Source of the DNA: Burkholderiaceae bacterium
Lineage (GTDB): Bacteria; Pseudomonadota; Gammaproteobacteria; Burkholderiales; Burkholderiaceae_D
NCBI GenBank assembly: GCA_018261755.1
Contig: JAGTRJ010000018.1
Coordinates: 58,266 to 122,265 of the forward strand
Length of the DNA: 64,000 nt
Reading direction: 5' to 3'
Below the pieces are notes generated by a model, which saw nothing but the letters and a program-made list of their open reading frames with translations, was not told the origin of the DNA and made no database searches. Positions 3,255 to 59,738 of this stretch are shown in pieces; the stretch's first letter is position 1, and each line of letters opens with the position of its first letter. A program made the position numbers and the translations under genes.

Positions 3255-3742
3255 ACGCGAAAGCGGTCATCGCCTACATCGGATTGGGCGCCAACCTGGG
3301 TGACGCGGCCGGCAACGTGAGGCGCGCGCTGGTGCGTTTGGGGCAATTGCCGCAGACCGAATTGAGTGCGCAGTCATCGCTGTTTCGTACCGCGCCGGTT
3401 GATGCCGATGGCGACGATTACGTGAACGCGGTGGCGCAGCTCACGACCCGTCTGGCACCGCAGGCGCTGTTGCGTGAACTGCAAGCGATCGAAAACGATT
3501 TCGGGCGCGAGCGTCCTTACCCGAATGCGCCGCGAACGCTGGATCTGGATATCTTGCTGTATGGCGACCGGCAAATCACGTCGGACCAGCTGGTCGTGCC
3601 GCACCCGCGGCTGACCGAGCGCGCATTCGCGCTGATTCCGCTGCTGCAGCTCGACCCGTTGATTGCGATTCCCGGCAAGGGGCTGGCGCACGCGTTTGTG
3701 CCGGCGGTGGCGGGGCAGGGCATCCAGCAGATGGGGAAATAA
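3251..3742 (+). CDS. folK: 2-amino-4-hydroxy-6-hydroxymethyldihydropteridine diphosphokinase
   Basis: A 163-residue HPPK of folate synthesis, transferring pyrophosphate from ATP to 6-hydroxymethyl-dihydropterin. It begins with GLGANLGD and contains the family signature RPYPNAPRTLDLDILLYG, whose Asp pair binds Mg-ATP, then VPHPRLTERAFALIPL. The length is normal. The start overlaps pcnB by ATGA. The stop codon at 3740-3742 overlaps the first bases of interspersed repeat copy A, so the repeat abuts the gene. Confidence 0.94.
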   Translation: MNAKAVIAYIGLGANLGDAAGNVRRALVRLGQLPQTELSAQSSLFRTAPVDADGDDYVNAVAQLTTRLAPQALLRELQAIENDFGRERPYPNAPRTLDLDILLYGDRQITSDQLVVPHPRLTERAFALIPLLQLDPLIAIPGKGLAHAFVPAVAGQGIQQMGK

Positions 3743-3811
3743 TACTGGGTGGGGTATTTGCAGGTGGCGGCGGAAATTGTGGCCTGGCGCATTGTTTTTA
3801 ATGTATACCCC
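3741..3811 (+). repeat. Interspersed intergenic repeat, copy A
   Basis: First of eight related copies. Hairpin AATAC (3741-3745) / GTATT (3754-3758) has an 8-nt G-rich loop, inverted relative to the C-rich loop of most copies. A middle part containing GTGGCCTGGCG follows, then GTTTTTAATG and terminal TATACCCC (3804-3811). It lies between folK and the DUF486 gene, both on +, and begins inside the folK stop codon. Confidence 0.7.
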
Positions 3812-3834
3812 GCCATTTCTATCAAAAATCACGG

Positions 3835-4191
3835 ATGATTGCGATGCAGATTCCCGTCATAGTTCAGACTGCTGGCCTGTTGATTCTGTCGAACGTGTTC
3901 ATGACCGTCGCCTGGTATGGTCATTTGAAGAATCTGTCGAGCAAGGCGTGGTGGGTGGCCGCCATCGTCAGTTGGGGCATTGCGCTGTTCGAGTACATGC
4001 TGCAAGTGCCTGCCAATCGCATCGGCTACACGCATTACAGTCTGGCACAGCTGAAAATCATGCAGGAAGTGATTACACTGTCGCTATTCGTGCCGTTTGC
4101 GATGCTGTACATGAAAGAACCGTTCAAGCTGGATTACGTCTGGGCAGGGTTGTGCCTGGTCGGCGCGGTGTATTTCATTTTCCGTTCATAA
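3835..4191 (+). CDS. DUF486 (DMT-like) small membrane protein
   Basis: A 118-residue protein with four predicted hydrophobic segments. It matches the DUF486 family of small drug/metabolite-transporter-like membrane proteins, with conserved-looking FMTVAWYGHLK near the N-terminus and the central QVPANRIGY motif. The function of the family is not established. The ATG at 3835 and a second in-frame ATG at 3844 are both possible; neither has a strong ribosome-binding site. It follows repeat copy A by 23 bp and precedes panB by 46 bp on the same strand. Confidence 0.82.
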   Translation: MIAMQIPVIVQTAGLLILSNVFMTVAWYGHLKNLSSKAWWVAAIVSWGIALFEYMLQVPANRIGYTHYSLAQLKIMQEVITLSLFVPFAMLYMKEPFKLDYVWAGLCLVGAVYFIFRS

Positions 4192-4237
4192 CAGAAGCCG
4201 CAGCGCGGCATGACACCATCATTCTGGAGAAGCAAAC

Positions 4238-5050
4238 ATGGCAAGTTACCTGCAGGAACGCAAGTCGATCACCGTACCCGACCTGAACCTGCTCAAGAGC
4301 CGCGGCGAAAAAATTACGATGCTGACCTGTTACGACGCGAGCTTTGCCGCGCTGATGGACAGCGCCGGGGTCGAAACGCTGCTGGTGGGCGATTCGCTCG
4401 GCATGGTATGTCAGGGGCGGGATTCGACCTTGCCGGTGACTGTGGACGAAGTCGCCTATCATACAGCCAGCGTCGCGCGCGGCAACAAGACTGCGCTGCT
4501 GCTGGCCGACATGCCGTTCGGCAGCTATGCCACGCCGCAGGCAGCGTTCGATAACGCCGTCAAGCTGATGCAGGCCGGGGCGCAGATGGTGAAGATTGAA
4601 GGCGGCAGCTGGCTGGCCGACACGGTACGCTTCCTGACCGAGCGCGCGGTGCCGGTATGCGCGCATCTGGGCCTGACGCCGCAGTCGGTGCACCAGTTCG
4701 GCGGCTACAAGGTGCAGGGCAAGACGGTCGAAGGCGCTGAAAGGCTGAAGGCCGATGCACTGGCATTGCAACAGGCCGGGGCCAGCCTCGTGGTGCTGGA
4801 AGCGATCCCGGCCGCGCTGGGGTGCGAGGTGACCGACATGCTGTCGATGCCGACGATTGGCATCGGCGCCGGGCCGGATTGTTCCGGCCAGGTGCTGGTG
4901 ATGCATGACATGCTGGGCGTATTTCCCGGCAGGAAGCCGCGCTTCGTGAAAAATTTCATGCAAGGCCAGGCCAGTATCGATGCGGCGGTGAAAGCCTACG
5001 TCGCGGCAGTCAAGGATGGTACTTTCCCGGCGCCGGAGCACTGCTTCTAG
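4238..5050 (+). CDS. panB: 3-methyl-2-oxobutanoate hydroxymethyltransferase
   Basis: A 270-residue enzyme making ketopantoate from 2-oxoisovalerate and methylene-tetrahydrofolate, the first committed step of pantothenate/CoA synthesis. The sequence shows [16 protein letters not shown] (metal ligand Asp near residue 52), ADMPFGSY and VKIEGG, the last two carrying further metal-site residues, and the [17 protein letters not shown] signature. The start is preceded by CTGGAGAAGC, a good Shine-Dalgarno. panC, which often adjoins panB, is not in the window. Confidence 0.95.
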
Positions 5051-5058
5051 GAGCGGAT

Positions 5059-5769
5059 ATGGCATTGAACGCATCCATCGGCGAAGCCTTTCAGTTGCTG
5101 TTTTCCGGCGATGCGGTACTGTGGGGCATCATCTGGGTTTCGCTGAAAACCTCGGTGCTGGGGCTGGCGCTCGCAACGCCGCTGACGGTACTGGCCGGCT
5201 ACTGGCTGGCGACGCATGATTTCCGCGGCAGGGGGCTGGTGATCTGGCTGTTGCAGGCATCGCTGTCGATGCCGACCGTGCTGATTGGCCTGCTGCTGTA
5301 CATGCTGCTGTCGCGGCAAGGGCCGCTGGGCATGCTGCACATGCTGTTTTCGCAAACCGGCGTGATTGCCGGGCAAGTGCTGATTGCGTTGCCGGTGCTG
5401 CTGGCGTTCACGCTGTCGGCGGTGCAGGCGGCTGATCCGCGCATAGCGGAAACAGCGGTCACGCTCGGCGCATCGCGCTGGCGCGTGATGCTGACCGTGC
5501 TGCATGAAGTGCGCTTTGGTGTGATGGCGGCGATCATCAACGGTTTCGGCCGCGCGATTTCCGAAGTTGGCTGCGCGATGATGGTCGGCGGCAACATCGC
5601 CAGTGAAACGCGCACGATTACCACCGCGATTGCGCTGGAAACGAGCAAGGGCGAATTTGCGCAGGGCATCGCGCTTGGCATTTTGCTGATCTCGGTTGCG
5701 CTGGTGATCAATGCCGCGCTGATGCTGTTGCAGGGCGAGGCGCGCAATACCGGAGTGATTGCGCAATGA
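5059..5769 (+). CDS. tupB: ABC transporter permease, tungstate (TupB)-like
   Basis: A 236-residue inner-membrane permease with about five or six hydrophobic segments and the cytoplasmic EAA-type coupling loop (AETAVTLGASRWRVMLTVLHE near residues 132-152). ISEVGCAMMVGGNIASETRTITTAI is characteristic of the TupB/WtpB tungstate/molybdate branch. It is followed with a 4-base overlap by the ATPase gene and then by a Mop-domain gene, which supports oxyanion transport. No periplasmic binding protein is adjacent. The exact oxyanion is inferred from family resemblance. Confidence 0.82.
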   Translation: MALNASIGEAFQLLFSGDAVLWGIIWVSLKTSVLGLALATPLTVLAGYWLATHDFRGRGLVIWLLQASLSMPTVLIGLLLYMLLSRQGPLGMLHMLFSQTGVIAGQVLIALPVLLAFTLSAVQAADPRIAETAVTLGASRWRVMLTVLHEVRFGVMAAIINGFGRAISEVGCAMMVGGNIASETRTITTAIALETSKGEFAQGIALGILLISVALVINAALMLLQGEARNTGVIAQ

Positions 5770-6467
5770 CGCCATTGCTCCTGCTGCGCGGCATCAGCAA
5801 GCGTTTCGGGGCGCGGCTGCTGTTCGAGATTGATGAACTGGCGATCGAGGCTGGCAGCGCAACGGTGCTGACTGGTCCGAACGGCAGCGGTAAAAGCACC
5901 TTGCTGCGCATCCTCGGCGGGCTGGATACGGCCGACATCGCTCAGGCCGAATTTCACGGTCAGCCGTTGTCATTCTCGCCCTATCCGAAAATGCTGCGCG
6001 AGGCAGTCGTCTATGTGCATCAGCACCCTGTGATGTTTTCGACCAGCGTTGCCGGCAATATCGCTTACGGGCTGAAGTTGCGCGGCGTTTCTGGTCCGGC
6101 GTTGGCGCGGCAGGTGGACGAAGCGATGGAATGGGCCGGGGTGACGCACCTGCGCGAACACCGGCCGGACACCTTGTCTGGCGGCGAGAAGCAGCGCGTC
6201 GCGCTGGCGCGCGCCAAGGTGCTGCTGCCGGATCTGCTGCTGCTGGATGAGCCGACCTCCAGCCTTGACGGCAAGGCGCGGGAACAGGTGGTCGCTCTGA
6301 TCCCCGACTTGATCCGGGCTGGCTGCAGCGTGGTGATGGCGTCGCACGACCAAGACTTGGGTAAACAGCCCGCCATGCGCCATCTCGAACTGCGCGACGG
6401 GCACATGACATCGGACAAATCCGATGCAATTCCTTCGGCTATACTCCGGACGATTTCCCCCCACTGA
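5766..6467 (+). CDS. tupC: ABC transporter ATP-binding protein, tungstate (TupC)-like
   Basis: A 233-residue ABC ATPase. Walker A is GPNGSGKST (about residues 38-46), the Q-loop region is VVYVHQHPVMF, the signature is LSGGEKQRVALARA, Walker B is LLLLDEPTSSLD, and the switch His is in MASHDQDL. The start overlaps the permease stop. It has no C-terminal TOBE domain; instead a separate Mop-type protein is encoded 15 bp downstream. It would drive uptake of tungstate or molybdate through the upstream permease. Confidence 0.85.
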   Translation: MTPLLLLRGISKRFGARLLFEIDELAIEAGSATVLTGPNGSGKSTLLRILGGLDTADIAQAEFHGQPLSFSPYPKMLREAVVYVHQHPVMFSTSVAGNIAYGLKLRGVSGPALARQVDEAMEWAGVTHLREHRPDTLSGGEKQRVALARAKVLLPDLLLLDEPTSSLDGKAREQVVALIPDLIRAGCSVVMASHDQDLGKQPAMRHLELRDGHMTSDKSDAIPSAILRTISPH

Positions 6468-6482
6468 ACCAAGGAGAACGCC

Positions 6483-6692
6483 ATGCGACTCAGCGCACGA
6501 AACCAGCTTGAAGGCATCATCCGTTCCATCCATGAAGGCCCGGTCAATTCCGAAATCGGGATCGAAGTCGCTCCTGCCGTGCTGGTGCATGCGCAGATCA
6601 GCACCGCTTCAGTCAAGCGGTTGCAGCTGGAAATTGGCAAGAAAGCATACGCGATCATCAAAACCGATTCGGTGATGGTCGGGGTTGATTGA
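6483..6692 (+). CDS. Mop-domain molybdopterin/molybdate-binding protein (molbindin)
   Basis: A 69-residue single-domain protein beginning MRLSARNQLEG, the hallmark start of Mop/TOBE oxyanion-binding domains, followed by IGIEVAPAVLVHAQISTASV and an AYAIIKTDSVMVGVD end. Free-standing molbindins oligomerise and bind molybdate or tungstate in the cytoplasm, as store or homeostatic buffer. CCAAGGAGAACGCC gives a strong ribosome-binding site. Its position directly after the Tup-like transporter supports a joint role in Mo/W uptake and buffering. Confidence 0.88.
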   Translation: MRLSARNQLEGIIRSIHEGPVNSEIGIEVAPAVLVHAQISTASVKRLQLEIGKKAYAIIKTDSVMVGVD

Positions 6693-6747
6693 CAAGAGAG
6701 ACGAAGATGCAGGCAGACAGTAGCGTTCAGCCGGAGGTGTGCCAGAC

Positions 6748-7965: not shown

Positions 7966-7997
7966 GCGCGGTTGCCGGCTCAGCGACCGTTTTGTGC

Positions 7998-8684: not shown

Positions 8685-8788
8685 TGGGTATTCGCTTGGC
8701 AACGGATGCCAGGAGTGGTGGACAAAGCAGGGTTTTCCTCAACTCCGCATTCTGACATTTTCCAAGCCATCGGAAAACCGTTTTTTGC

Positions 8789-8823: not shown

Positions 8824-8845
8824 GGGATTTTGGATGGGGCGGCCG

Positions 8846-14125: not shown

Positions 14126-14157
14126 CGCGGCCTGATACGGCCTGTACGGCTGAAATT

Positions 14158-14224
14158 ATACTAGAGAGAGTATGTTTTTTACCCGCGGAATGTCTGGATG
14201 AACCAGATATTTGGGGCATATACT
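14158..14224 (+). repeat. Interspersed intergenic repeat, copy B (diverged)
   Basis: ATACT (14158-14162) / AGTAT (14169-14173) hairpin with 6-nt loop AGAGAG, then GTTTTTTACCCGCGGAA resembling copy E. An internal TCTGG-ATGAA-CCAGA hairpin follows, and the end is GCATATACTTC in place of TATACCCC. It fills the gap between recN and hemH (both on -), abutting the recN stop. Confidence 0.55.
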
Positions 14225-14228
14225 TCGG

Positions 14229-17070: not shown

Positions 17071-17149
17071 GCGGGAGTATGCGGTCAAACCATTTGGTTG
17101 GGCCAAATATTTCGCGGTGGTTTTTGCATACCCTGGTGAGTATATTTTT
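17071..17149 (-). repeat. Interspersed intergenic repeat, copy C
   Basis: In minus orientation: AAATATACTCACCAGGGTATG at the hrcA-proximal end, then AAAAACCACCGCG. A long imperfect hairpin follows with AACC-ATTT-GGTT at its apex (about 17087-17100), then GCATACTCCCGC. It closely parallels copy H. It sits in the 406-bp nadK/hrcA divergent gap, ending 54 bp before the hrcA ATG, so it may overlap hrcA promoter signals. The rest of that gap (16797-17070) shows no gene. Confidence 0.6.
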
Positions 17150-18255: not shown

Positions 18256-18279
18256 TTGCCCTGGCGCACACCAGGATGC

Positions 18280-18309
18280 AAAAAAGCCCCGTCAAGCGGG
18301 GCTTTTTTT
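18280..18309. terminator. Bidirectional terminator between hrcA and csp
   Basis: GCCCCG (18286-18291) / CGGGGC (18297-18302) stem with a 5-nt loop, flanked by six A on the left and seven T on the right, so it can terminate both the + gene hrcA and the - gene csp. Confidence 0.92.
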
Positions 18310-18327
18310 ACCAGTCAAGCGCCTGAT

Positions 18328-18531
18328 TTAGATCGGCTTGATGTTGGTTGCTTGCGGGCCTTTTTGCCCCATGCCGGACACAAAGCTCACTTTTTGGCCT
18401 TCTGCCAGCGATTTGAAGCCTTCTGCGCGGATTTCCGAGAAGTGCGCAAACAAATCCTTGCCGCCGGCATCAGCGGTGATGAAGCCAAAACCCTTGGCGT
18501 CGTTGAACCATTTAACAGTACCTGTTTCCAT
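18328..18531 (-). CDS. Cold-shock-domain protein (CspA family)
   Basis: A 67-residue nucleic-acid-binding protein. [18 protein letters not shown] contains RNP1 (KGFGFI), and DLFAHFSEI supplies RNP2-like residues. It acts as an RNA chaperone; whether it is cold-induced or constitutive cannot be told from the protein. AAAGGAAAACATA precedes the ATG. The leader is long (see 18532-18683), which is typical of cspA-type regulated genes. Confidence 0.95.
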
Positions 18532-18683
18532 TATGTTTTCCTTTGGAACGATGAAGAAGAATGGGCTAATGCCCGGTGTACAAGATAATCAAGGGAAACT
18601 ACATGGAACAGTGGAACCGCTTTGAGGAGGCACAACGATGTACTTGGAGAACTTGCTTGATGATATTGTTGCCGGCAATTATA
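18532..18683 (-). promoter_or_regulatory. Long 5' leader and -10 box of the csp gene
   Basis: A perfect TATAAT (minus strand, 18678-18683) is the only strong -10 box between pyrF and csp; no good -35 is seen at the right spacing. It implies a leader of about 140 nt, the size of cspA-type cold-responsive leaders. The leader structure was not resolved. Confidence 0.5.
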
Positions 18684-24390: not shown

Positions 24391-24509
24391 CAAAATAACT
24401 GACCCAATCATCAGTTGGGTTCAGTTAGGTCGAAAAGTATACCCCCTGCAGTATTTTTAAACAGTCAGCAAATATGTGGCCCGGCGGCATATTTTGATCA
24501 TATACCCCC
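24391..24509 (+). repeat. Interspersed intergenic repeat, copy D (extended form)
   Basis: The upstream module AAAATAACTGACCCAA with its mirrored TTGGGTTCAGT forms a hairpin (24398-24425). The core follows: GTATACCCCCTGCAGTAT (24437-24454), TTTTTAAACAG, and AAATATG/CATATTT (24470-24494) enclosing TGGCCCGGCGG. It ends TCATATACCCCC. It lies in the convergent gap between the diguanylate cyclase and dacB. The remaining about 95 bp up to the dacB stop show no gene. Confidence 0.72.
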
Positions 24510-26412: not shown

Positions 26413-26414
26413 GG

Positions 26415-33920: not shown

Positions 33921-33998
33921 CCAAAAAATACTCGGGGTAGTATTTTTTAACCGCCGCGGAAGTTCCGGCGGAAGCCCTGTTTTTAAGCATATACCCCC
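33921..33998 (+). repeat. Interspersed intergenic repeat, copy E
   Basis: An 8-bp hairpin AAAATACT (33925-33932) / AGTATTTT (33939-33946) with 6-nt loop CGGGGT, then a strong CCGCC...GGCGG hairpin with inner GGAA/TTCC (about 33951-33971). The element ends TGTTTTTAAGCATATACCCCC. It lies in the convergent gap between copZ and the YeeE-like gene. Confidence 0.7.
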
Positions 33999-35366: not shown

Positions 35367-37019
35367 ATGAAACCCATGCAAATAGTGGTTATTGGCGGCG
35401 TCGCCGCTGGTGCATCGTTCGCGGCGCGCGCTCGGCGTCTGAGTGAATCGGCGCAGATCACGGTGATTGAACGCGGGCCGGACGTGTCGTTCGCGAACTG
35501 CGGCTTGCCGTATCACATTGGCGGCGAAATCCCAGTGCGCGACGTGCTGGCGGTGCAGACCCCGGCCAGCCTGAAGGCGCTGCTGAATGTCGATGTGCGC
35601 GTGCGCACCGAAGCGATGCAAATTGATCGCGAAAACAGGCGCGTGCTGGTGCGCGATGTAGAAAGCGGGCAAAGCGAATGGCTAACTTACGACAAGCTGA
35701 TGCTGGCGCCGGGCGCGGCGCCGCGCGTGTCGAAACTGCCCGGTGTTGGCGATCCGCGCGTGTTCACGTTGCGCAATCTGGCCGACATGGATCGGATTGG
35801 CGCGGCCGCGAATGCCGGCATGCGGGCGGTGGTGGTCGGCGCCGGTTTCATCGGGCTGGAAATGGCCGAGCAATTGCACCACAAGGGCTTGACGGTCGAG
35901 GTGGTGCAGATAGGTTCGCAAGTGTTGCCGCAGATCGATGCCAAGCTGGCACTGCTGTTGGAAAACGAACTGCTGCACCACGACATCAAGCTGCACCTGA
36001 ACGATCAGGTCGTGCGCTTCGATGGTCGGGATGATGCGCTGCATTGTCAGCTCGCATCCGGCAAGGCGCTGGATGCAGATTTCGTTGTGCTGTCGATCGG
36101 GGTCGAGCCGGAAACAAAACTGGCCAGAGATGCCGGGCTGACGCTGGGCGCGCGCGGCCATATCGTGGTCAACGATTTCATGCAGACGTCGGATGCCGAT
36201 ATTTACGCCGCCGGCGATGCGATCGAAACGCGCGACCGCGTGTTCGGCGACCAGGTGAACGTACCGCTGGGCGGACCGGCCAACCGGCAGGGACGCGTGG
36301 CGGCCGATCATGTGTTCATGCAGGACAAGGCACGGCCGTATCCGGGCTCGGTTGCGACCGCGATCGTGCGCGTGTTCGGCGTTGCCGCCGGCAGCACCGG
36401 CTGGACCGAGGACCGGCTGCAAAAGGCCGGGCGCGACTATCGCGCGGTGACGGTCAACGATTACCAGCACGCGACCTACTTCCCCGGCGCGATGCCGCTG
36501 ACGCTGAAGATTTTGTGGGATACGCAAACGGGCGAGCTGCTCGGCGGGCAGGCGGCCGGGCATGATGGCGTGGACAAGCGGCTCGACGTGCTGGCGACCG
36601 CGATTGCCGGCAAGCTGACGGTCGAGGATCTGGCGCATCTGGAGCTGGCGTATGCGCCGCCGTTCGGCTCGGCCAAGGATATCGTCAACCTGGCCGGCTT
36701 TGCCGCCGGCAACCAGCGTGACGGGCTGGTGGAAACGGTGACCGAACTGCCGGCCGATGCTTCGGTGCAAATCATCGACGTGCGCGGCAAACCGATGGCC
36801 GATGCGAATCCGGTGCCGGGCGCGGTCAACATCCCGATGCCGACCTTGCGCGCAAACCTTGAGCGGCTCGACAAGAACCGGCCGGTGGTGACTGTGTGCG
36901 CGATGGGCAAGAACAGCTATTTCGCCTCGCGCGTGCTCAAGCAGAATGGCTTCGACGTGAAAAGCCTCGACGGCGGTGTGAAAATGCTGATCAATCCGCG
37001 CAATCCGGCCAAGGTGTGA
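35367..37019 (+). CDS. CoA-disulfide reductase / persulfide reductase with C-terminal rhodanese domain
   Basis: A 550-residue flavoprotein. The N-terminal FAD motif VVIGGVAAGASFAARARRL and Cys45 in SFANCGLPYH are the signature of CoA-disulfide reductases. The NAD-binding AVVVGAGFIGLEMAE and the second FAD motif DIYAAGDAIETRD follow. Residues about 465-550 are a rhodanese domain with active Cys511 in TVCAMGKNSY. Such fusions reduce CoA-persulfide or polysulfide with NAD(P)H. AAGGAACAAC precedes the ATG. Divergent from the repressor-YeeE operon, across the shared operator. Confidence 0.92.
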   Translation: MKPMQIVVIGGVAAGASFAARARRLSESAQITVIERGPDVSFANCGLPYHIGGEIPVRDVLAVQTPASLKALLNVDVRVRTEAMQIDRENRRVLVRDVESGQSEWLTYDKLMLAPGAAPRVSKLPGVGDPRVFTLRNLADMDRIGAAANAGMRAVVVGAGFIGLEMAEQLHHKGLTVEVVQIGSQVLPQIDAKLALLLENELLHHDIKLHLNDQVVRFDGRDDALHCQLASGKALDADFVVLSIGVEPETKLARDAGLTLGARGHIVVNDFMQTSDADIYAAGDAIETRDRVFGDQVNVPLGGPANRQGRVAADHVFMQDKARPYPGSVATAIVRVFGVAAGSTGWTEDRLQKAGRDYRAVTVNDYQHATYFPGAMPLTLKILWDTQTGELLGGQAAGHDGVDKRLDVLATAIAGKLTVEDLAHLELAYAPPFGSAKDIVNLAGFAAGNQRDGLVETVTELPADASVQIIDVRGKPMADANPVPGAVNIPMPTLRANLERLDKNRPVVTVCAMGKNSYFASRVLKQNGFDVKSLDGGVKMLINPRNPAKV

Positions 37020-40526: not shown

Positions 40527-40647
40527 GTCAAAATAAATGACTGGAAAGTCGTTTTGGGTCAATAAGCCTGAAAAATATACTCCGCCCAGTATTTAAAAAC
40601 AGCCACCAAATATGTGGCCTGGCGGCGTATTTTGACTATATACCCCC
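40527..40647 (+). repeat. Interspersed intergenic repeat, copy F (extended form)
   Basis: Upstream module AAATAAATGACT...GGGTCAATAAGCCTG (40530-40570). The core ATACT (40577-40581), loop CCGCCC, AGTAT (40588-40592) follows, then TTAAAAACAGCCACC and AAATATG/CGTATTT enclosing TGGCCTGGCGG. It ends CTATATACCCCC (40647). It starts right after the amn stop and lies in the convergent gap before the GGDEF/EAL gene; 40648-40813 shows no gene. Confidence 0.75.
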
Positions 40648-43210: not shown

Positions 43211-43677
43211 GCCGCGGCAACGCCTGCAGGCAAGCGTGTCTGGTGATGCAAGAAAAAATACATCGACGGTATGTGTTGGTAAGGAATCACGAGGATTGAT
43301 GTTGTTGCCATGCAGCAGCCGCACGCAATGGCATAAGCATGATTCAGGCCAGTTGCGTGTGGATGTGGGGTAATATTTCCACAGGGAAACAGTATTCTAC
43401 AGGCAAATACGTTTTTGGCAAAGATGAAAGCCGATTATAAACATCAACGGCTATGGATTCGGCTGCTGTGCTGACGGGGATGATTGCATGCGCCAAGCAT
43501 GGTTTGGCAAATCATTACTGGCAGGCGCGTCGCAAATGATTCTCATGTGCAACCTTTCTCGTTGACAACGAATTTTGATGGGCGCAAGATCAATATCCAT
43601 TCGTATCAGGAAACGCAAGGAGTAACCAGTCACACCACTGCCGCAAACCTTTTTAACCCCCATCCGAGGTGGCATTC
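43211..43677. other. 467-bp divergent intergenic region with a possible Fur box
   Basis: No gene is recognised between the GGDEF/EAL gene and the autotransporter. ATGATTCTCAT at 43536-43546 resembles the centre of a Fur box (ATGATAATCAT). TTGACA at 43562-43567 with CAAGAT 17 bp downstream is a weak candidate promoter for the autotransporter. Both are tentative. Confidence 0.35.
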
Positions 43678-46491
43678 ATGCAAAACAACAATAATCGGCC
43701 TGTATCATGCACCGCGTTTCGCCTCATACCGCTTGCAGCCCTGATCGCCGCGCTCTTTGCGCCAGCCGCGCAAGCAACCAGTTTTGTGATTGCCAACGGC
43801 GAAACCGTTACCACCCCTCAGTTGCTGAAAGATGATGAAACCGGCGTGGTTCAGGCGGGTGGCGCCATCAATACCATCGGCCCTGGCATCCTGGCCTCCG
43901 GCATCAACAACACCGTCAGCAACAATGGCACGATTTCGACCAAGGGAGATCGCTCGGCCGGTATTGACGCCAGAAGTCTCAACATCAGTATTGCCAACAG
44001 CGGTTCGATTTCAACCGCGGGGAATTACGCTTGCGGCATTCGTTCGAACAGCGATACTGTCAACGCCGTCGTCAGCAACAGCGGCTCGATTTCAACCAAG
44101 GGCACGTATGGCTACGGCATTTATTCGGAGGGGGCCGGCGCTACCATTGTCAATAGTGGATCAATTTCAACCACGGCCAATATGAGTTATGGCATTTATT
44201 CAGAGGGCGACAATGCCAGCATCACCAATCGGGGCAGCATTTCAACCTCGGAATTTGCCGCGGATGGCATCGGTTCAGACGGTGCCAATGCCATCATCAC
44301 CAACACGGGATCCATTTCGACCACGGGGCGAAGTCACGGCATCAGCTTAACCAACGTCAATGCGACAGTTGTCAACAGCGGTTCGATCCTGACCACGGCT
44401 GATAATGCCCATGGCATCGTTTCAATGGGCGACCATGCTGCCGTCACCAACAGCGGTTCCATCACGACCAAAGGTTCGCGGGCATTTGGCATCGGTGCCG
44501 ATGGCGTCAATACCATCCTCACCAACAGCGGAGCCATTTCGACCGCCGGAATTGCCGCGTATGGCATTTCTTCAGCCGGCGCCAATGCCAGTATCACCAG
44601 CAGCGGCGCCATCTCGACCGCGGGCAAAAGAGCGCACGGCATTTACTCTGTCGGCGCGAATGCCACCGTCATCAACAGCAAATCGATCTCGACCACGGGT
44701 ACTGCGAGTGCGGGTATTGCCGCCGAAGGTGATAACACCACGGTCATCAACCATGGCACGATTTCGACCACGGGTGAAGGCGCGCCTGGCATTGCTTCAA
44801 GCGGGATTAACGCCACGCTCACCAACAACGGCACGATTTCGACCGCAGGCGAGGGCATGTTATCAATGGGTGATAACAGCGTCATCACCAACAATGGCAC
44901 GATTTTGGCTGCGGACGGGATGGCACCAGCCATGGTTTCAATCGGCGCCAATACCATCCTCACCAACAAGGGAGGCATTTCGGTATCCGGATTTGCCGTC
45001 GATGGCATTTTCTCGTCAGGCGCAAATATCGGCATTGCCAATAGTGGCTCGATCTCGGTCAATGGAAATTATGCCTATGGCATTTACGCCCATGGCGCCA
45101 ATGCTACCGTCACCAACAGCGGTTCGATTTCGATCAAAGGAAATAACAGCTACGCCATCAATTCAGATGGCGCCAACGCCAGCATTACCAACAGCGGCAG
45201 CATTGCGGTCACCGGGCCCAGCAGTGCCGGCATCAACGTCATTGCCGGCGGTAACAACGTCATCAACGTCAGCGGCAGTGTGATGGCGACTGGTTTGGCC
45301 ACGCAGGCGATCGTCGGCGCGGACGGCAATGAAACACTGAACCTGCTGCGCGGCGCAAGAATCGTCGGCGCCATCGATCTGGGCGCAGGCGCCAACACGG
45401 TGAACGTCACTGCCAGCGGCGCGATGCCATCGTCCACTATCGGCATTGGCAGCACTGGCGGCACGCTGGTCATCAACAGGAATGGCGGCGACGCGCTGGC
45501 GTTCGTGAAAGGCAGCACTATTGCGATGGTGGATACGACCAACATCACCGCAGCGCAAACCTCCATCGGCTCGGTCTCATCCGGCATCTTCCAGGCCGTC
45601 AACCGGCAACTGAACCGCGCGCCGGTTGTGGACGGCGGGGCGAATGGTACGCAACCGAATGCCACGCAAGCTAACGGATGGGGGCAGATGTTCGGCAAAT
45701 ACGCTAAGCATGGCAGCAGCGGTGCCGCGCTGTCGTTTGGCGATCATACCTACGGCGTGATTGGCGGTTACGAACAGCGCATTGGCGAATATCGCGCCGG
45801 CGTCTTTGGCGGCGCGGCCCAGTCAAGGGTGGATACCGAGCGCAACTCGGCCAGCACGGACAGCAATGCCGCCTTTGTCGGTGTTTATGGTCAATACGCC
45901 AAGGATAACTGGGTATTCAATGGCGCGCTGGCGCTAGGTTATTCCCACCACAATGGCGACCGGCGCGTGCTCGATAACTTGTACGGCAATCAAACGGCTG
46001 CGGCGGATTATCACGGCTGGTTTCTAAGCCCTTCGGTTGCGGTCATGCGAATTTTCGACCGGGGCAGCGGTTTCAGTTGGCGTCCATCGGCCGAATTGAA
46101 CTATACCTATGGCCGTCTGGGCAGTTATAGCGAGAACGGCACCACGCGTTCCAATTTGTCCGTGGGCAGCAGAGCCGCACAGGTGCTCAACACCCGGCTG
46201 CAACTGGCCGCGCGTCAGGATTTTGCCGACAAGAAGGGTGACGTCGAGTGGCGCGGCGGCCTGAGTCATACTCGCTATGGGGACGATACGGTTGCAATGG
46301 CGCTGCAGGGGGCTGGCAGCACGCGCTATGGCATGACGGGCACCGGCAACGTCACCGGCCCCTATCTCGGCGCAAGAGGGCGCATGCAATGGAAACCGTC
46401 CCTCAGCCTTGTCGGCGATGTGGAATTCTTCCACGCCAACAACAGCAACCGTTCCATCACCGCTTATCTCGGTCTGGAATACCGGTTTTGA
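43678..46491 (+). CDS. Autotransporter with about 18 tandem beta-helix repeats
   Basis: A 937-residue type V secreted protein. The signal peptide ends about residue 33 (FAPAAQA). From about residue 75 to 520 the passenger consists of roughly 18 repeats of about 24-25 residues, of the type TNSGSISTTG-x-x-AYGIYS-x-GANATI, predicting a right-handed beta-helix. A linker (about 560-650) and a C-terminal beta-barrel of about 270 residues follow (MFGKYAKHGSSGAALSFGDHTYGVIGGYE, ending YLGLEYRF with the terminal Phe). The ATG at 43678 with GAGG eight bases upstream is preferred over GTG 43669. Likely surface-displayed; a role in adhesion or autoaggregation is inference. Confidence 0.9.
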   Translation: MQNNNNRPVSCTAFRLIPLAALIAALFAPAAQATSFVIANGETVTTPQLLKDDETGVVQAGGAINTIGPGILASGINNTVSNNGTISTKGDRSAGIDARSLNISIANSGSISTAGNYACGIRSNSDTVNAVVSNSGSISTKGTYGYGIYSEGAGATIVNSGSISTTANMSYGIYSEGDNASITNRGSISTSEFAADGIGSDGANAIITNTGSISTTGRSHGISLTNVNATVVNSGSILTTADNAHGIVSMGDHAAVTNSGSITTKGSRAFGIGADGVNTILTNSGAISTAGIAAYGISSAGANASITSSGAISTAGKRAHGIYSVGANATVINSKSISTTGTASAGIAAEGDNTTVINHGTISTTGEGAPGIASSGINATLTNNGTISTAGEGMLSMGDNSVITNNGTILAADGMAPAMVSIGANTILTNKGGISVSGFAVDGIFSSGANIGIANSGSISVNGNYAYGIYAHGANATVTNSGSISIKGNNSYAINSDGANASITNSGSIAVTGPSSAGINVIAGGNNVINVSGSVMATGLATQAIVGADGNETLNLLRGARIVGAIDLGAGANTVNVTASGAMPSSTIGIGSTGGTLVINRNGGDALAFVKGSTIAMVDTTNITAAQTSIGSVSSGIFQAVNRQLNRAPVVDGGANGTQPNATQANGWGQMFGKYAKHGSSGAALSFGDHTYGVIGGYEQRIGEYRAGVFGGAAQSRVDTERNSASTDSNAAFVGVYGQYAKDNWVFNGALALGYSHHNGDRRVLDNLYGNQTAAADYHGWFLSPSVAVMRIFDRGSGFSWRPSAELNYTYGRLGSYSENGTTRSNLSVGSRAAQVLNTRLQLAARQDFADKKGDVEWRGGLSHTRYGDDTVAMALQGAGSTRYGMTGTGNVTGPYLGARGRMQWKPSLSLVGDVEFFHANNSNRSITAYLGLEYRF
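43915..45240 (+). repeat. Coding tandem repeat array in the autotransporter
   Basis: About 18 imperfect units of 72-75 bp encode the passenger repeats. Recurring words such as ACCAACAGCGG, ATTTCGACCAC and GGCATTTATTC are shared between units, with drift in spacing and one shortened unit near 44835-44900. Such arrays can change copy number by recombination or slippage. Confidence 0.85.
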
Positions 46492-55222: not shown

Positions 55223-56741
55223 TCGCAACAAGGCATTGCTGCTGGCGTTCGTTTCCGGCCTGCTGAGCCTGGGAATGGAAATCGTCTGGACGCGGCTGGT
55301 GTCGTTCACGCATCACACCGTGCCGCAATCGTTCGCCTATGTGCTGTTCTGCTATCTGCTCGGCATCGCGCTTGGCGCCCAAGTAGGCAAGAAGGCTTGC
55401 GTTCGCAGCCAGGGCAGCGCCGAGGCCCTGTGGCGTGTGGCCGGGCAATCGCTGATCTGGTCGGCCGCGTTCGACGTCGCCGCCATCGCGCTGTATGCGG
55501 CGCTGCCGATGCACCCGTATCTCGATGCCGCCTACCTGCTGCTGGTGATCACCCTTTCCGCCGGCATCAAGGGCATCATCTTCCCGATCGTGCATTACAT
55601 CGGCTCGCTCAAGAGCGATGAAGAACTGGGCGCGTCGATTTCCAACATCTACGCCGCCAACGTGGCCGGCGCCACCATTGGCCCACTGTTCGTCGGCTTC
55701 GTGCTGCTCAATATCGCCACGCTGCAGCAGGCAATGCTGATTTGCGCGCTGGCGGCGATCGTCGTCTGGGCGCTGGTGTCGCGCCAGTCCACCGGCAAGA
55801 AGCATTTCACGCTGGCGCTGGTATCGGGCGCGGTGATGCTGGCGGCGATCGGACTGGCCGACCGCCACCTGCTGATTCGTGGCCTGGTCGAGCGCGAGGA
55901 TGGCCGCGGCACCAAGATCGAATTCATCAACGAAAGTCGGCACGGCACCATCCACGCGGTGCGCGACAAGGATGACGATCTGGTGGTGTATGGAGAAAAT
56001 CTGTACGACGGCAAGATCAACACCAGCCTGACGCACGACGTCAACGGCATGTTCCGCGTCTATGCGCTGGCGGCGATGCATCACAACCCGCGGCGCGTGC
56101 TGGTGATTGGCTTAAGCGGCGGCTCGTGGGTCGAAGTGCTGCGCCACTTCCCGCAAGTGCAAAGCATCGACGTGGTCGAAATCAACCCGAACTATCTCAA
56201 GCTGGTGAAAAGCCAGCCCGAAGTGGCGGCGCTGCTCGACGACCCGCGGGTGAAAATCCACATCACAGACGGCCGAAAATACATCCGCCAGCATCCGGAA
56301 AAATACGACCTGATCGTGATGAACACTACCTGGCACTGGCGCGCCTACAGCGTGCTGCTCTTGGGGCAGGATTTCATGACCGCACTCAGAAGCTCGCTCA
56401 ATCCCGGCGGCATGATGGCGTTCAACACCACCAGTTCGATGGACGTGTTCTACACCGCTTCGAAGGTGTTCCCGTTCGCCGGCCTGTACTCGAACTTTGT
56501 CTTCGCCAGCGACCACGACCTGCGGCCAAAATTGAAGGACAACGCGGCCCGCATCTATCAGGTGGCGATGGCGGTGTCCGGCAAATCGGCCAATGCGGAA
56601 GCGATAGCGGAAGCAGCGAACAATACCGCCACCAGGCCGATACAACTGGTGTCCGAAGTTGAGTTCAAGCGGCCGCCGGAGGTGGTGACCGAGAGGAACA
56701 TGATCACCGAGTATAAGTACGGCATGCCCTTCATCCACTGA
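55215..56741 (+). CDS. Spermidine-synthase-like protein with membrane N-terminus
   Basis: A 508-residue protein. The first about 210 residues are a second membrane repeat, AFVSGLLSLGMEIVWTRLVSF, parallel to the start of the upstream protein. A methyltransferase-like Rossmann domain then has VLVIGLSGGSWVEVLRHFP, IDVVEINPNY and ITDGRKYI. Where true spermidine synthases have an Asp-containing loop (DLIIxDxTDP), this one reads DLIVMNTTWHWRAYS, so aminopropyl transfer is unlikely. The real reaction is unknown. Translationally coupled to the upstream half. Confidence 0.8.
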   Translation: MSDRNKALLLAFVSGLLSLGMEIVWTRLVSFTHHTVPQSFAYVLFCYLLGIALGAQVGKKACVRSQGSAEALWRVAGQSLIWSAAFDVAAIALYAALPMHPYLDAAYLLLVITLSAGIKGIIFPIVHYIGSLKSDEELGASISNIYAANVAGATIGPLFVGFVLLNIATLQQAMLICALAAIVVWALVSRQSTGKKHFTLALVSGAVMLAAIGLADRHLLIRGLVEREDGRGTKIEFINESRHGTIHAVRDKDDDLVVYGENLYDGKINTSLTHDVNGMFRVYALAAMHHNPRRVLVIGLSGGSWVEVLRHFPQVQSIDVVEINPNYLKLVKSQPEVAALLDDPRVKIHITDGRKYIRQHPEKYDLIVMNTTWHWRAYSVLLLGQDFMTALRSSLNPGGMMAFNTTSSMDVFYTASKVFPFAGLYSNFVFASDHDLRPKLKDNAARIYQVAMAVSGKSANAEAIAEAANNTATRPIQLVSEVEFKRPPEVVTERNMITEYKYGMPFIH

Positions 56742-56860
56742 TTCCCGCCCGTGACGGCGCGATAGCGGCGTTGCGCGGCCTTGCCGTACATGCGTACTGT
56801 ATTCGGCTCGCGCGCCTGGCTCTCGCACTGGTATGGGCGGGAATGGGGAAGGCAGCCGGC

Positions 56861-56977
56861 TAAAATAACTGACCAAAATGAATTTCTGGTCAGTAAGGCT
56901 GAAAAATATACTCCAGCCAGTATCTGAAAACAGCCAGCAAAAACGTGGCCCAGCGCTATGTTTTTACTATATACCCC
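56861..56977 (+). repeat. Interspersed intergenic repeat, copy G (extended form)
   Basis: The upstream module hairpin ACTGACC (56868-56874) / GGTCAGT (56888-56894) is a perfect 7 bp. Then AAGGCTGAAAAATATACT, loop CCAGCC, AGTAT (to 56922). CTGAAAACAGCCAGC follows, then AAAAACG/TGTTTTT arms around TGGCCCAGCGC. It ends CTATATACCCC (56977). It lies in the convergent gap between the spermidine-synthase-like gene and the CDF gene. Confidence 0.76.
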
Positions 56978-56988
56978 GTCGTTTTTCG

Positions 56989-57921
56989 CTAAACAACATG
57001 CTCCGGCGCCAGCCGGCACAGGTTGCTGCCGCCTTCAAGCTCAATCTGGATGGTGGCGTGGTGGATGCGGAAGCGGTGTTCCAGTTCTTCCGCCAGTTGC
57101 GCCAGGAAGGCGTTGCCGGGGTGCGCGCCGGCAACGACCAAATGCGCGGTCAGCGCGGTTTCGGTGGTGCTCATGCCCCAGATGTGCAGGTCGTGCACTT
57201 CGGCCACTTCTGGCAGGCCGGCGAGGAAGGCGCGCACTTCAGCCGCGTCGATGTTGTGCGGCACGCCGTGCAGCGACAGCCGCAGCGATTGCTTGAGCAA
57301 ATCCCAGGTGCCGATGAAAATCACGGCGGCGACGATCAGGCTGATGACCGGATCGAGCCAGAGCCAGCCGGTCCATTTCATGCCGAAGCCGGCGGCGGCG
57401 ACGCCGAGCGAAACGGCTGCGTCGGCCACCATGTGCAGGAATGCGCCTTTGAGGTTGAGGTCATGTTCGTGGCCTTTCATCAGCATTAGCGCGGTGCCGA
57501 GGTTGATCACGAAACCGATCAGTGCCACCCAGATGATGATGTCTTCATTCACTGGCGACGGTTGCGACAGCCGGTGCAGCGCTTCCCACACGATGACGCC
57601 AATCGCGACCAAGAGCAGCATCGCGTTGGCCAGCGCCGCCAGAATGGTCGAACCGCGCAGGCCGTAGGTGAAGCGCGGGCTTGGCAGGCGGCGCGCCAGC
57701 AGCAGCGCGACCCAGGCGGCAACCAAGCCGATGACGTCGCTGAAATTGTGGCCGGCATCGGCCAGCAGCGAGAGCGAATTCGAATAGAAGCCGAACCCGG
57801 CTTCGACGATGACGAAGCCGAGGTTGAGCGCAACGCCAATCGCGAATGCGCGGCTGGTTGCGTCCACATGGCTGTGGTCATGGCCGTGGCCGCAGGAATG
57901 GTGATGATGGTGTTCGCTCAT
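56989..57921 (-). CDS. Cation diffusion facilitator (Zn/Co/Cd exporter)
   Basis: A 310-residue CDF transporter. The N-terminus is His-rich (MSEHHHHHSCGHGHDHSH, a metal-binding stretch). Six hydrophobic segments include LLADAGHNFSDVIGL (helix 2 HxxxD metal site) and FLHMVADAAVSLGV (helix 5). The C-terminal cytoplasmic domain carries VHDLHIWGMSTTETALTAHLVV. It resembles CzcD/ZitB. The ATG at 57921 is chosen as the typical start; the frame remains open for 65 more codons upstream, which do not look like protein. Confidence 0.9.
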   Translation of the reverse strand: MSEHHHHHSCGHGHDHSHVDATSRAFAIGVALNLGFVIVEAGFGFYSNSLSLLADAGHNFSDVIGLVAAWVALLLARRLPSPRFTYGLRGSTILAALANAMLLLVAIGVIVWEALHRLSQPSPVNEDIIIWVALIGFVINLGTALMLMKGHEHDLNLKGAFLHMVADAAVSLGVAAAGFGMKWTGWLWLDPVISLIVAAVIFIGTWDLLKQSLRLSLHGVPHNIDAAEVRAFLAGLPEVAEVHDLHIWGMSTTETALTAHLVVAGAHPGNAFLAQLAEELEHRFRIHHATIQIELEGGSNLCRLAPEHVV

Positions 57922-58002
57922 GGTGTTGTTCTGCCCGGTAAACATATTGAATATTTTGCAGCAAGGATTGTGCCGCAGTTGCGCCGATCTGTCATCGCGC
58001 TG

Positions 58003-58024
58003 GCTGACGCACTGATGCGTCAGC
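58003..58024. other. Perfect 9-4-9 inverted repeat upstream of the CDF gene
   Basis: GCTGACGCA (58003-58011), CTGA, TGCGTCAGC (58016-58024) lies in the 284-bp divergent gap between the CDF transporter (-) and gabD (+), about 80 bp before the CDF start. No T-run. It could be an operator or an RNA hairpin; no regulator gene is adjacent. Confidence 0.6.
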
Positions 58025-58205
58025 AGGAGAGGTTGGTTGTGGCTTGTTTGCCGAATCGCGAGCGTGCCGCTGCGGTGATTTGCGCTGCGGGCGTGAGCGA
58101 GTATCCTGTACGGCAAGAGGCGTGAACGCGGCAGCGTGGAGGGTACGGTAATTATCTATGCGCATGACCGGATCGTCGGCAACGTGAAAACGGAGGGGTG
58201 AAATC

Positions 58206-59654
58206 ATGAAGCAACTTGCGGATTCCGGATTATTCGTTCAGCGGGGGATGATTGGCGGCCAGTGGCTGCCGGCGCAAAGTGGGCGCGCCATTGCGGTGAA
58301 CAATCCCGCCACGGGCGATTGGCTTGGCAGCGTGCCTGATATGGGGCGCAGTGAAACGGCGCAGGCAATCGATGCCGCTGCCAAGGCTTTTCCGGCGTGG
58401 TCTGCTGCCAGTGCAAAGGAACGTTCGGCGTTGCTGCGACGCTGGTATGAACTGATGATGCTGGCGCAAGATGATCTGGCGCGCATCATGACGCTGGAAC
58501 AGGGCAAGCCGCTGGCAGAAGCGCGTGGAGAAATTGCGTATGGCGCCAGTTACATCGAATGGTTTGCCGAACAGGCGCGACGCATCAACGGTGACGTAAT
58601 ACCGGCGGCGCAGCGCGACCGGCGGATTGTCGTGCTGCGCCAGCCAATCGGGGTCTGCGCAGCAATTACGCCGTGGAATTTTCCCAACGCGATGCTGGCG
58701 CGCAAACTGGCGCCAGCGCTGGCGGCCGGCTGCACAATGGTTGTCAAGCCGGCCGAGCAGACGCCTTTTTCGGCGTTGGCAATGGGCGTGCTGGCCGAAC
58801 GGGCAGGCATTCCGCCGGGGGTGATCAACATCGTGACCGGTAATGCAGTTGAGATTGCCGCTGCGTTATCCGATGAGCCGACTGTGCGCGCGCTCAGTTT
58901 CACAGGTTCGACCGAGGTTGGCCGCAAGTTGATGCGGCAATCGGCTGATACGCTCAAGAAGCTGTCGCTGGAACTGGGCGGGAATGCGCCGTTCATAGTG
59001 TTCGACGATGCCAAACTGGATGCGGCGGTCGAGGGGGCAATGGCGGCCAAGTTCCGCAACAACGGCCAGACCTGTGTGTGCGCCAACCGGATTTTCGTGC
59101 ATGAACGGTTGCATGATGCGTTTTGCGACCGGCTGGCGGCACGCATCCGTGCGTTGCGCGTGGGGAACGGGCTTGAGCCGGGGGTAGATGTCGGGCCTCT
59201 GATTGATGAACGGGCAGTGACAAAAGTCGAACAGCACATCGCCGATGCGCTGGCGCAAGGGGCCACGCTGCTTGCCGGTGGCCAGCGCCTGGCCGGAAAT
59301 TTTTTCCAGCCAACGTTGCTGGCCGGGGTGACGCCAGCGATGCAGGTTGCGCGCGAAGAAACCTTCGGCCCGGTAGCGCCAGTGATCCGCTTTTCCGATG
59401 ACGACGAAGTGATCGGGATGGCGAACGATACCGAGTATGGCCTCGCGTCGTACTTCTACACGCAAAACCTGGCGCGCGGCTGGCGCGTGGCAGAACGGTT
59501 GGAATATGGCATTGTCGGCGTCAATACCGGCTTGATCTCGACGGCCGAGGCACCGTTTGGCGGGGTCAAGCAATCCGGCTTCGGCCGGGAAGGCTCGCAT
59601 TATGGTATTGATGAATACATCGAGCTGAAATATCTGTGCTTCGCGCTGGATTGA
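58206..59654 (+). CDS. gabD: Succinate-semialdehyde dehydrogenase [NAD(P)+]
   Basis: A 482-residue aldehyde dehydrogenase. Glu256 in LSLELGGNAPFIVF is the general base, Cys290 in NNGQTCVCANRIFVHE the nucleophile, and PWNFPNAMLARK is in the cofactor region. The C-terminal GVNTGLISTAEAPFGGVKQSGFGREGSHYGIDEY is characteristic of GabD. It oxidises succinate semialdehyde to succinate in GABA breakdown. CGGAGGGGTGAAATC gives a strong ribosome-binding site. gabT is not adjacent. Repeat copy H follows immediately. Confidence 0.92.
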   Translation: MKQLADSGLFVQRGMIGGQWLPAQSGRAIAVNNPATGDWLGSVPDMGRSETAQAIDAAAKAFPAWSAASAKERSALLRRWYELMMLAQDDLARIMTLEQGKPLAEARGEIAYGASYIEWFAEQARRINGDVIPAAQRDRRIVVLRQPIGVCAAITPWNFPNAMLARKLAPALAAGCTMVVKPAEQTPFSALAMGVLAERAGIPPGVINIVTGNAVEIAAALSDEPTVRALSFTGSTEVGRKLMRQSADTLKKLSLELGGNAPFIVFDDAKLDAAVEGAMAAKFRNNGQTCVCANRIFVHERLHDAFCDRLAARIRALRVGNGLEPGVDVGPLIDERAVTKVEQHIADALAQGATLLAGGQRLAGNFFQPTLLAGVTPAMQVAREETFGPVAPVIRFSDDDEVIGMANDTEYGLASYFYTQNLARGWRVAERLEYGIVGVNTGLISTAEAPFGGVKQSGFGREGSHYGIDEYIELKYLCFALD

Positions 59655-59657
59655 CGG

Positions 59658-59738
59658 AAAACCGCGGGTATATGGCTAAACCATGTCGTTAGGCCATATA
59701 TTCCGCGGTTTTTGAAATATACTGTGGGTAGTATATTT
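59658..59738 (-). repeat. Interspersed intergenic repeat, copy H
   Basis: In minus orientation, like copy C. The short hairpin has a perfect 9-bp stem AAATATACT (59715-59723) / AGTATATTT (59730-59738), loop GTGGGT. The long hairpin has AAAACCGCGG (59658-59667) / CCGCGGTTTT (59703-59712) with inner TATATGGC/GCCATATA, followed by T on the + strand, so it could also terminate gabD. Convergent gap between gabD and the GGDEF/EAL gene. Confidence 0.72.

What the first reader, a model, noticed from the sequence alone, without database searches (positions are those of the whole stretch)
3741..59738. A multicopy interspersed intergenic repeat family, eight copies in 64 kb
Seen: copies at 3741-3811(+), 14158-14224(+), 17071-17149(-), 24391-24509(+), 33921-33998(+), 40527-40647(+), 56861-56977(+) and 59658-59738(-). 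Common plan: a hairpin with ATACT/AGTAT-type arms and a 6-8 nt C- or G-rich loop, an A/T-rich joint (TTTAAAACAG type), a second hairpin often holding GTGGCC-x-GGCG, then TTTTTA and terminal ATATAC-CCC. Variation: the loop is inverted in copy A, the second hairpin is remade in E, C and H, and the terminal CCCC is lost in B. Arms are kept while sequence drifts, suggesting selection on structure. At this density a whole genome would hold hundreds. I cannot name the family. Candidates are REP/MITE elements mobilised in trans, or a multicopy small RNA; the betaproteobacterial toxic small RNA family in Rfam is the known class to compare first.
Basis: partly seen in the sequence, partly recalled or inferred. 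Interest (0 to 1): 0.85.

Follow-up and report, generated by a model that had tools for sequence, protein, structure and literature searches.

The report
Evenly spaced CsoR-family binding elements
The eight repeats belong to a family of an estimated 280 short intergenic DNA elements, lying on average every 8 kb along the chromosome and conserved site by site where tested, that are likely binding sites of one small CsoR-family protein predicted to organise the chromosome rather than sense metal.

Summary
In detail: all eight copies are real, and 100 copies lie in the 860 kb of this genome that I read (about 280 by extrapolation). The interpretation changes. No helix covaries. What is kept is a DNA frame, ATAC-N8-GTAT-N46..48-ATACYC, in random orientation to genes, and it recurs in three genera. 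Between orthologous copies it hardly drifts (0 of 209 and 4 of 227 positions in two species pairs) while the rest drifts like nearby flanks. In this genome the copies are spaced more evenly than chance (CV 0.57 against 0.91). The frame tracks one gene, a 103-aa CsoR/RcnR-fold protein: 57 of 59 genomes with a frame match carry it; within one genus 24 of 26 carriers and 0 of 17 non-carriers have matches. The gene's promoter holds the same palindrome exactly in three genera and with one mismatch in a fourth, also in a species of this genus without dispersed copies. I read the family as binding sites of this protein, most likely used as a sequence-specific chromosome organiser. Binding and function are inferred, not shown; many genomes have the gene without an array. 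Rfam and RAYT/REP explanations were tested and not supported.

The parts
3736..3812 (+). copy A, 77-nt core; frame 3742-3810; G-rich loop
   Evidence: model R1 64.6 bits; exact frame
14152..14227 (+). copy B, core; palindrome ATACTAGAGAGAGTAT from 14158, right motif ATACTT (one frame mismatch)
   Evidence: 65.9 bits; site also occupied in sister species, frame there partly changed
17073..17149 (-). copy C, core; frame 17075-17143; between NAD-kinase and hrcA genes (divergent)
   Evidence: 79.1 bits; also in sister species
24391..24509 (+). copy D, long form (upstream module plus core 24433-24509; frame 24439-24507); convergent genes
   Evidence: 83.4 bits; also in sister species
33922..33998 (+). 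copy E, core; frame 33928-33996
   Evidence: 71.1 bits; also in sister species
40527..40647 (+). copy F, long form (core 40571-40647; frame 40577-40645); convergent genes
   Evidence: 88.5 bits; also in sister species
56860..56978 (+). copy G, long form (core 56902-56978; frame 56908-56976); convergent genes
   Evidence: 81.4 bits; exact frame
59664..59740 (-). copy H, core; frame 59666-59734; convergent genes
   Evidence: 78.7 bits; exact frame

Best explanation
The repeats are likely binding sites of a single CsoR/RcnR-fold DNA-binding protein (encoded at L236:1450-1758, on another contig), predicted to serve as a site-specific chromosome organiser whose sites lie on average every 8 kb. Shown here: the frame ATAC-N8-GTAT...ATACYC with near-fixed spacing; its recurrence in three genera; conservation of the frame at the orthologous sites compared, while the rest drifts; over-regular spacing in this genome; random orientation and placement between genes, often just behind stop codons; strong co-occurrence with the gene; and the same palindrome in the gene's own promoter in most genera examined. 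Inferred: that the protein binds the palindrome, and that the right-hand ATACYC is a further half-site about 57 bp from the palindrome centre, possibly reached by wrapping. Inferred more weakly: that the role is architectural (anchoring, domain borders) rather than control of single genes, since the sites avoid divergent promoters and the protein lacks one residue of the metal triad. The copies must once have spread by copying; the agent of that spread is unknown.
For: Frame: exact matches 232 in G000, 205 G001, 205 G014, 215 G078, with 0 in the reversed-pattern control in each of these four genomes. Only spacer 8 is enriched (99 against 1-7 for the other spacers from 4 to 13 in 860 kb), and 99 against a mean of 9 (range 0-21) for 11 permuted half-sites. 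Selection in place: G014/G078 orthologs 0 of 209 frame mismatches, rest of element 10.5%, flank within 60 nt 10.9%, P 8.2e-6 at half that flank rate; G000/G001 4 of 227, rest 25%, 2000 random 12-column sets never below 24 mismatches. Occupancy: 21 of 21 anchored G000/G001 sites, 19 of 19 G014 frames (18 distinct sites) in G078 and 18 of 18 in reverse. Spacing: CV 0.571 against means of 0.89-0.91 in 10,000 random placements under each of three nulls, none as low; eight candidate sets agree. Gene link: 57 of 59 frame-positive genomes carry the protein against 70 of 333 frame-negative, Fisher 3e-30; 20 of 20 genomes with at least 3 matches; in genus g33 24 of 26 against 0 of 17, Fisher 4e-10, and 21 of 23 against 0 of 13 among genomes at least 90% complete. 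Operator: exact ATAC-N8-GTAT within 200 nt upstream of the gene in 13 of 30 loci, at most one mismatch in 18 of 30; seven permuted half-sites exact in 0 of 30, with one mismatch in 0-4 of 30. CsoR/RcnR sites are G/C tracts flanked by TAC/GTA-type inverted repeats, RcnR TACT-G6-N-AGTA (PMC3902906, passages); many g33 loops are TACT-G6-AGTA or its reverse, and loop halves avoid self-complementarity in G000, G001, G034 (z -5.4, -4.0, -3.0). Fold: PF02583; InrS, CsoR and FrmR relatives in PDB by sequence and model. The protein is 100% identical between G000 and G001, where 0 of 92 other ortholog pairs reach 99% (median 93.5%).
Against: No binding was measured. The gene occurs without an exact frame match in 70 of 127 genomes that have it, including G002 of the same genus, so it is not sufficient. 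In genus g13 the loop is AT-rich and its halves show no such avoidance (z 0.0), unlike a classical CsoR/RcnR site. The gene's promoter lacks the palindrome in all 11 g29 loci and one g33 locus. In g13 the spacing result is mixed: CV 0.30-1.13 over five tracts, with one 52-kb gap. In g13 the outer flank, mostly genes, differs by only 4.4%; at half that rate P is 0.01, not 8e-6. Part of the G001 loci were fetched because they held a match, so 21 of 21 is not a fair sample; the G078 stretches compared were mostly chosen by synteny. Shared ancestry inflates the Fisher values, and 4 of the 17 gene-negative g33 genomes are under 75% complete. Foldseek E-values are weak (best 0.009, none under 0.001) although probabilities are 0.99-1.00. 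Even spacing could also come from insertion immunity.
Confidence: 0.58

Rival explanations
1. An old non-autonomous mobile element (MITE/REPIN-like) with target immunity, now immobile; the CsoR-like protein merely recognises or restrains it.
For: Copies share 77-119 nt of consensus, and the long form (52 of 103 copies in G000, 29 of 49 in G001) looks like a lineage-specific expansion. Even spacing could reflect target immunity.
Against: No empty site among 21 anchored sites or among the 19 and 18 compared in g13; the frame is conserved in place in both species pairs, which a selfish relic does not need; no terminal inverted repeats seen in the aligned copies; one site (ispD-ispF gap) occupied in two genera; the only PF01797 match of G000 has a broken HUH motif.
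Confidence: 0.2
2. Roadblocks at gene ends: the bound protein stops read-through or antisense transcription between neighbouring genes, without any chromosome-scale role.
For: 28 of 99 classified copies lie between convergent genes against 110 of 661 gaps; divergent gaps hold 9 of 99 against 104 of 661 (chi-square p 0.0037); 42 of 62 co-directional copies lie nearer the upstream stop than the downstream start.
Against: Only about one in seven gaps has an element, and the even spacing along the chromosome is not expected from need at single gene ends.
Confidence: 0.16
3. A very large conventional metal or stress regulon of a CsoR/RcnR repressor.
For: Palindrome resembles RcnR/CsoR sites; the gene is probably autoregulated.
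Against: Sites avoid divergent promoters and tend to sit behind stop codons; the His position of the metal triad (taken from the aligned FrmR-like L231) is Ser/Ala/Thr in 16 of 16 orthologs aligned; none of eight neighbouring frames from six loci is a metal exporter by Pfam.
Confidence: 0.04
4. A multicopy structured small RNA.
For: Predicted hairpins in single copies.
Against: No covariation in the copies of four genomes; no Rfam match; random orientation to genes.
Confidence: 0.02

Closest known systems
CsoR/RcnR/FrmR/InrS operators and repressors (Pfam PF02583)
   Same: TAC/GTA-type inverted repeat around a G/C tract (in g1 and g33); a small all-helical protein of the CsoR fold; palindrome at the gene's own promoter.
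   Different: Hundreds of dispersed sites instead of a few; sites tend to lie behind genes, not at promoters; one residue of the metal triad missing; an extra half-site at near-fixed distance; g13 loops AT-rich.
REP/BIME and REPIN elements with RAYT transposases
   Same: Short, extragenic, hundreds of copies, long persistence, lineage-specific sequence.
   Different: The two end motifs lie in the same orientation; no co-occurrence with RAYT; spacing even, whereas REPINs are reported as randomly distributed in extragenic space (PMC3116915, abstract passage).
Sequence-specific chromosome-organising sites (matS/MatP, SlmA and Noc sites; recalled, not tested)
   Same: Many short palindromic sites of one protein spread over a chromosome.
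   Different: Those sites are shorter and follow other spatial patterns; none is a 70-bp composite bound by a CsoR-fold protein (from recall).
Neisseria dRS3/NIME repeats (recalled, not tested)
   Same: Intergenic repeat with an inverted repeat around an 8-nt spacer.
   Different: Different motif, phage-integration role, not linked to a CsoR-fold protein (from recall).

Membership tests
CsoR/RcnR protein family | PF02583 match and CsoR fold | tested here: met
   61.4 bits against cut-off 22.8; CsoR, FrmR, InrS and CstR chains are the top 20 Foldseek matches, probability 0.99-1.00, E 0.009-0.17. No NCBIfam member model reaches its cut-off.
CsoR/RcnR protein family | complete metal-ligand triad | tested here: not met
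   Cys49 kept in 16 of 16; His position aligned to L231 is Ser/Ala/Thr in 16 of 16; third position His in 15 of 16 (ligand roles recalled)
CsoR/RcnR operator (type 1) | AT-rich inverted repeat around an unbroken G/C tract of 3-8, spacing 6-9 | tested here: inconclusive
   met by most G034 and many g1 loops, not by g13 loops (AT-rich in 27 of 32) (definition)
REP/REPIN | two REPs in inverted orientation forming a hairpin | tested here: not met
   the two end motifs lie in the same orientation; no covarying helix
REP/REPIN | association with a RAYT gene | tested here: not met
   PF01797 gene in 6 of 7 and 10 of 10 genomes regardless of elements; those of carriers do not form a clade. One element does lie about 0.7-0.8 kb from the G000 RAYT-like gene, with another open frame between.
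MITE | terminal inverted repeats, target duplication, empty sites | tested here: not met
   no terminal inverted repeats in the aligned copies; no empty site found; target duplication not testable without empty sites
Rfam families, incl. betaproteobacterial toxic small RNA | covariance-model match | tested here: not met
   no match at any copy in the window at gathering or E<=5, nor at the element in 12 loci from three genera at gathering (12 of several hundred copies)
Nucleoid-organising protein and its sites | binding at the sites and effect on chromosome structure | not testable with these tools
   needs ChIP-seq and Hi-C; regular spacing found in G000, mixed in g13

The most novel reading that the evidence does not exclude
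A metal-sensor-fold repressor has become a site-specific chromosome organiser: its operator was combined with a third half-site into a 70-bp element, multiplied to 200-280 copies, and is now held by selection at near-regular 8-kb intervals, so that one protein lays an ordered grid over the bacterial chromosome in several genera.
Probability: 0.42. Interest if true: 0.96.

Novelty: categorically new. Interest (0 to 1): 0.9.

Why it matters
Intergenic repeats are usually filed as selfish or as leftover REPs. Here the copies behave as sites under selection, the set is spaced more evenly than chance in this genome, and a candidate protein is named. That makes a long-open question, whether interspersed repeats give a bacterial chromosome an ordered structure, testable with one ChIP-seq and one gene deletion. 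It would also be a new role for the CsoR/RcnR fold.

Tried and rejected
Structure: hairpins 1, 2 and 3, the long-form stem and a possible GGCYG/CAGCC stem were each tested by swapping arms between copies; the largest positive z among 20 tests in four genomes was 1.7, and 0.7 in the long-form tests. The per-column scan used 70 of 100 copies, those of exact length 77. Rfam: no match. RAYT: a PF01797 gene in 16 of 17 genomes, HUH motif broken in G000 and G001, tree without a carrier clade. The R1 model in 60 genomes found only G000 and G001, which would have suggested a two-species family; the frame pattern showed this to be due to divergence between genera. A single orthologous frame in g29 genomes was not followed further. 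Remnants in G002 at sites B and C were looked for by eye and not clearly found. Papers: ten searches listed nothing that describes this family by title or abstract start; I saw passages of PMC3902906 and PMC3116915, and all other papers only as listings.

Dropped rows: 2 of 21 ortholog pairs left the per-column test for gaps; one of 18 proteins in an alignment attempt failed to translate and was left out; 91 of 112 G000 copies had no anchored G001 counterpart in the sequences fetched; in g13, 5 of 41 G014 frames had broken alignments and 17 of 41, and 12 of 30 G078 frames, had no ortholog fetched.
Full report
The observation. A covariance model from the eight copies finds these eight in the window, at 64.6-88.5 bits, with the next match at 14.5. 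In 860,241 bases of the same genome (window plus 40 stretches) it finds 100 copies at E<=0.01, about 280 for 2.43 Mb by extrapolation. The sister species G001 (one of its contigs has the length of the CTSoil_108 contig L047) has 35 in 363,727 bases, two of them cut by stretch ends. At least 97 of the 100 copies overlap a called gene by 40 nt or less. No Rfam family matches a copy in the window or in 12 further loci.

What is conserved. In 70 gapless copies no nested helix stands out by covariation. Swapping arms between copies gives about the same pairing score as the true partners for every proposed stem in four genomes (largest positive z 1.7) and for the long-form module. What stands fast is sequence and spacing: ATAC-N8-GTAT, then 46-48 nt, then ATACYC. 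In G000, 96 of 103 such stretches have exactly the same length. ATAC-N8-GTAT occurs 99 times in 860 kb, while the other spacers from 4 to 13 give 1-7 and eleven permuted half-sites give 0-21, mean nine. Loop halves are anti-complementary (z -5.4, -4.0, -3.0 in G000, G001, G034; 0.0 in G014): in g1 and g33 the loop tends to be a C run or a G run on one strand, as in CsoR/RcnR operators.

A family across genera. Reduced to that frame, the family is not confined to two species. Exact matches: 232 in G000, 205 in G001, 205 and 215 in two g13 species, 17 in G034, with 0-1 per strand in the reversed control of any of the 100 genomes. Among 392 genomes of the family 59 have at least one match; 20 have three or more, in genera g1, g13 and g33. 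The interior differs between genera and the g13 loops are AT-rich. The ispD-ispF gap (genes named by eye) holds an element in both G000 and a g13 species.

Copies are under selection in place. At the anchored orthologous sites the element is present in both species: 21 of 21 for G000/G001 (part of the G001 loci had been fetched because they held a match), 19 of 19 frames, 18 distinct sites, from G014 to G078 and 18 of 18 in reverse (G078 stretches mostly chosen by synteny). In G014/G078 pairs the frame shows 0 mismatches in 209 positions (0 in 210 in reverse), the rest of the element 10.5%, the flank within 60 nt 10.9%, the outer flank 4.4%. In G000/G001 pairs it shows 4 in 227 against 25% in the rest (18% in the hairpin-2 columns), and 0 in 60 when only copies under 65 bits are used. 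Since one copy is chosen for an intact frame I tested against half the flank rate: P 8.2e-6 for g13 with the near flank and 0.01 with the outer flank; 1e-8 at a rate of 0.12 for g1. Of 24 copies scoring under 45 bits, 18 still have an intact frame, though the model itself rewards the frame.

Even spacing. In G000 the gaps between copies have CV 0.571; 10,000 random placements into intergenic gaps gave means of 0.89-0.91 (sd 0.08) under three weightings, none as low. Eight candidate sets of gaps, with tandem pairs merged, gave the same answer, and a longest gap of 20.6 kb against 33-37 kb expected. In g13 the picture is mixed: five tracts with CV 0.30-1.13 and one 52-kb gap. Orientation is random: neighbours agree in 46 of 92 cases. 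Copies favour convergent gaps (28 of 99 against 110 of 661 gaps) and avoid divergent ones (9 of 99 against 104 of 661).

The protein. The resemblance of the loop to CsoR/RcnR sites led me to PF02583. All 9 array carriers tested have a member; 3 of 11 others do. Searched in the same 392 genomes as the frame, the G000 protein has a homolog at E<=1e-6 in 127: 57 of 59 frame-positive genomes (misses: G240, and G270 which is 81% complete) and 70 of 333 frame-negative. Inside genus g33, 24 of 26 genomes with the gene have a match and 0 of 17 without it do; at 90% completeness or more, 21 of 23 and 0 of 13. The 200 nt upstream of the gene hold an exact ATAC-N8-GTAT in 13 of 30 loci (genera g1, g33, g66) and one with at most one mismatch in 18 (adding g13); the 12 without it are 11 g29 loci and one g33 locus. 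Seven permuted half-sites gave no exact hit, and 0-4 of 30 with one mismatch. G002, of the same genus (its 276,580-base contig has the length of that of L048, Oxalobacter sp. SURF_1), has the gene and this operator but no dispersed elements: 2 palindromes in 140 kb, at the control level. So the operator may have come first and the array later, and a gene without an array is common. The protein keeps the conserved Cys but not the following His of the metal triad in any of 16 orthologs (roles recalled). Its model has three helices, mean pLDDT 78.6, and matches FrmR, InrS and CsoR chains first. Eight neighbouring frames in six loci include no metal exporter by Pfam. The protein is identical between G000 and G001, whereas 0 of 92 other ortholog pairs reach 99%.

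Reading. A protein with hundreds of sites should be frozen in sequence, should keep its sites' contact bases while spacers drift, should occur wherever the arrays do, and could carry the site at its own promoter. The first three hold where tested; the fourth holds in g1, g33, g66 and nearly in g13, not in g29. Placement behind genes, random orientation, even spacing and the missing ligand point away from a metal regulon and towards chromosome organisation or read-through blocking. I commit to the first. Binding I put near 0.85, the architectural role given binding near 0.65-0.7. How the copies spread is not explained; the RAYT route is unlikely.

Limits. No binding or expression data; phylogenetic non-independence of the Fisher tests; my gene calls are from a home-made hexamer caller; spacing is tested on 35% of one genome; G014 stretches were in part chosen because they held matches.

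Noticed in passing
window 18279-18648 (-): cspA thermoregulator match, 78.7 bits against a cut-off of 78.
   Followed up: no
window 35395-35563 (-): Sub-threshold match to Vibrio antisense RNA AS7 (69.6 of 90 bits) inside a 550-aa open frame on the other strand; may reflect conserved coding sequence.
   Followed up: no
window 44056-45286: Degenerate repeat of mostly 75-nt period inside the 940-aa open frame 43669-46491.
   Followed up: no
L001:1378-2193 and L127: RAYT-like protein of G000 and G001 reads NQVH where most relatives in the tree read NHVH/NHFH or similar, so its HUH motif looks broken.
   Followed up: partly
L204-L207 and L209-L211: A single orthologous frame match downstream of a gene in several g29 genomes (PfkB-like by eye in L209); these genomes also carry the CsoR-like gene.
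   Followed up: partly
G078:C18 about 90.6-142.7 kb: 52-kb stretch without any element in an otherwise dense tract, perhaps an acquired island.
   Followed up: no
L069:18415 and 18576: Tandem pair of elements in the same orientation 161 nt apart; both positions are also occupied in G001.
   Followed up: no
L147:1252-1366 (-): TPP riboswitch close to a g33 element.
   Followed up: no
L250 and L253: A sensor histidine kinase gene (2CSK_N domain) lies next to the CsoR-like gene in both a g29 and a g33 locus.
   Followed up: no
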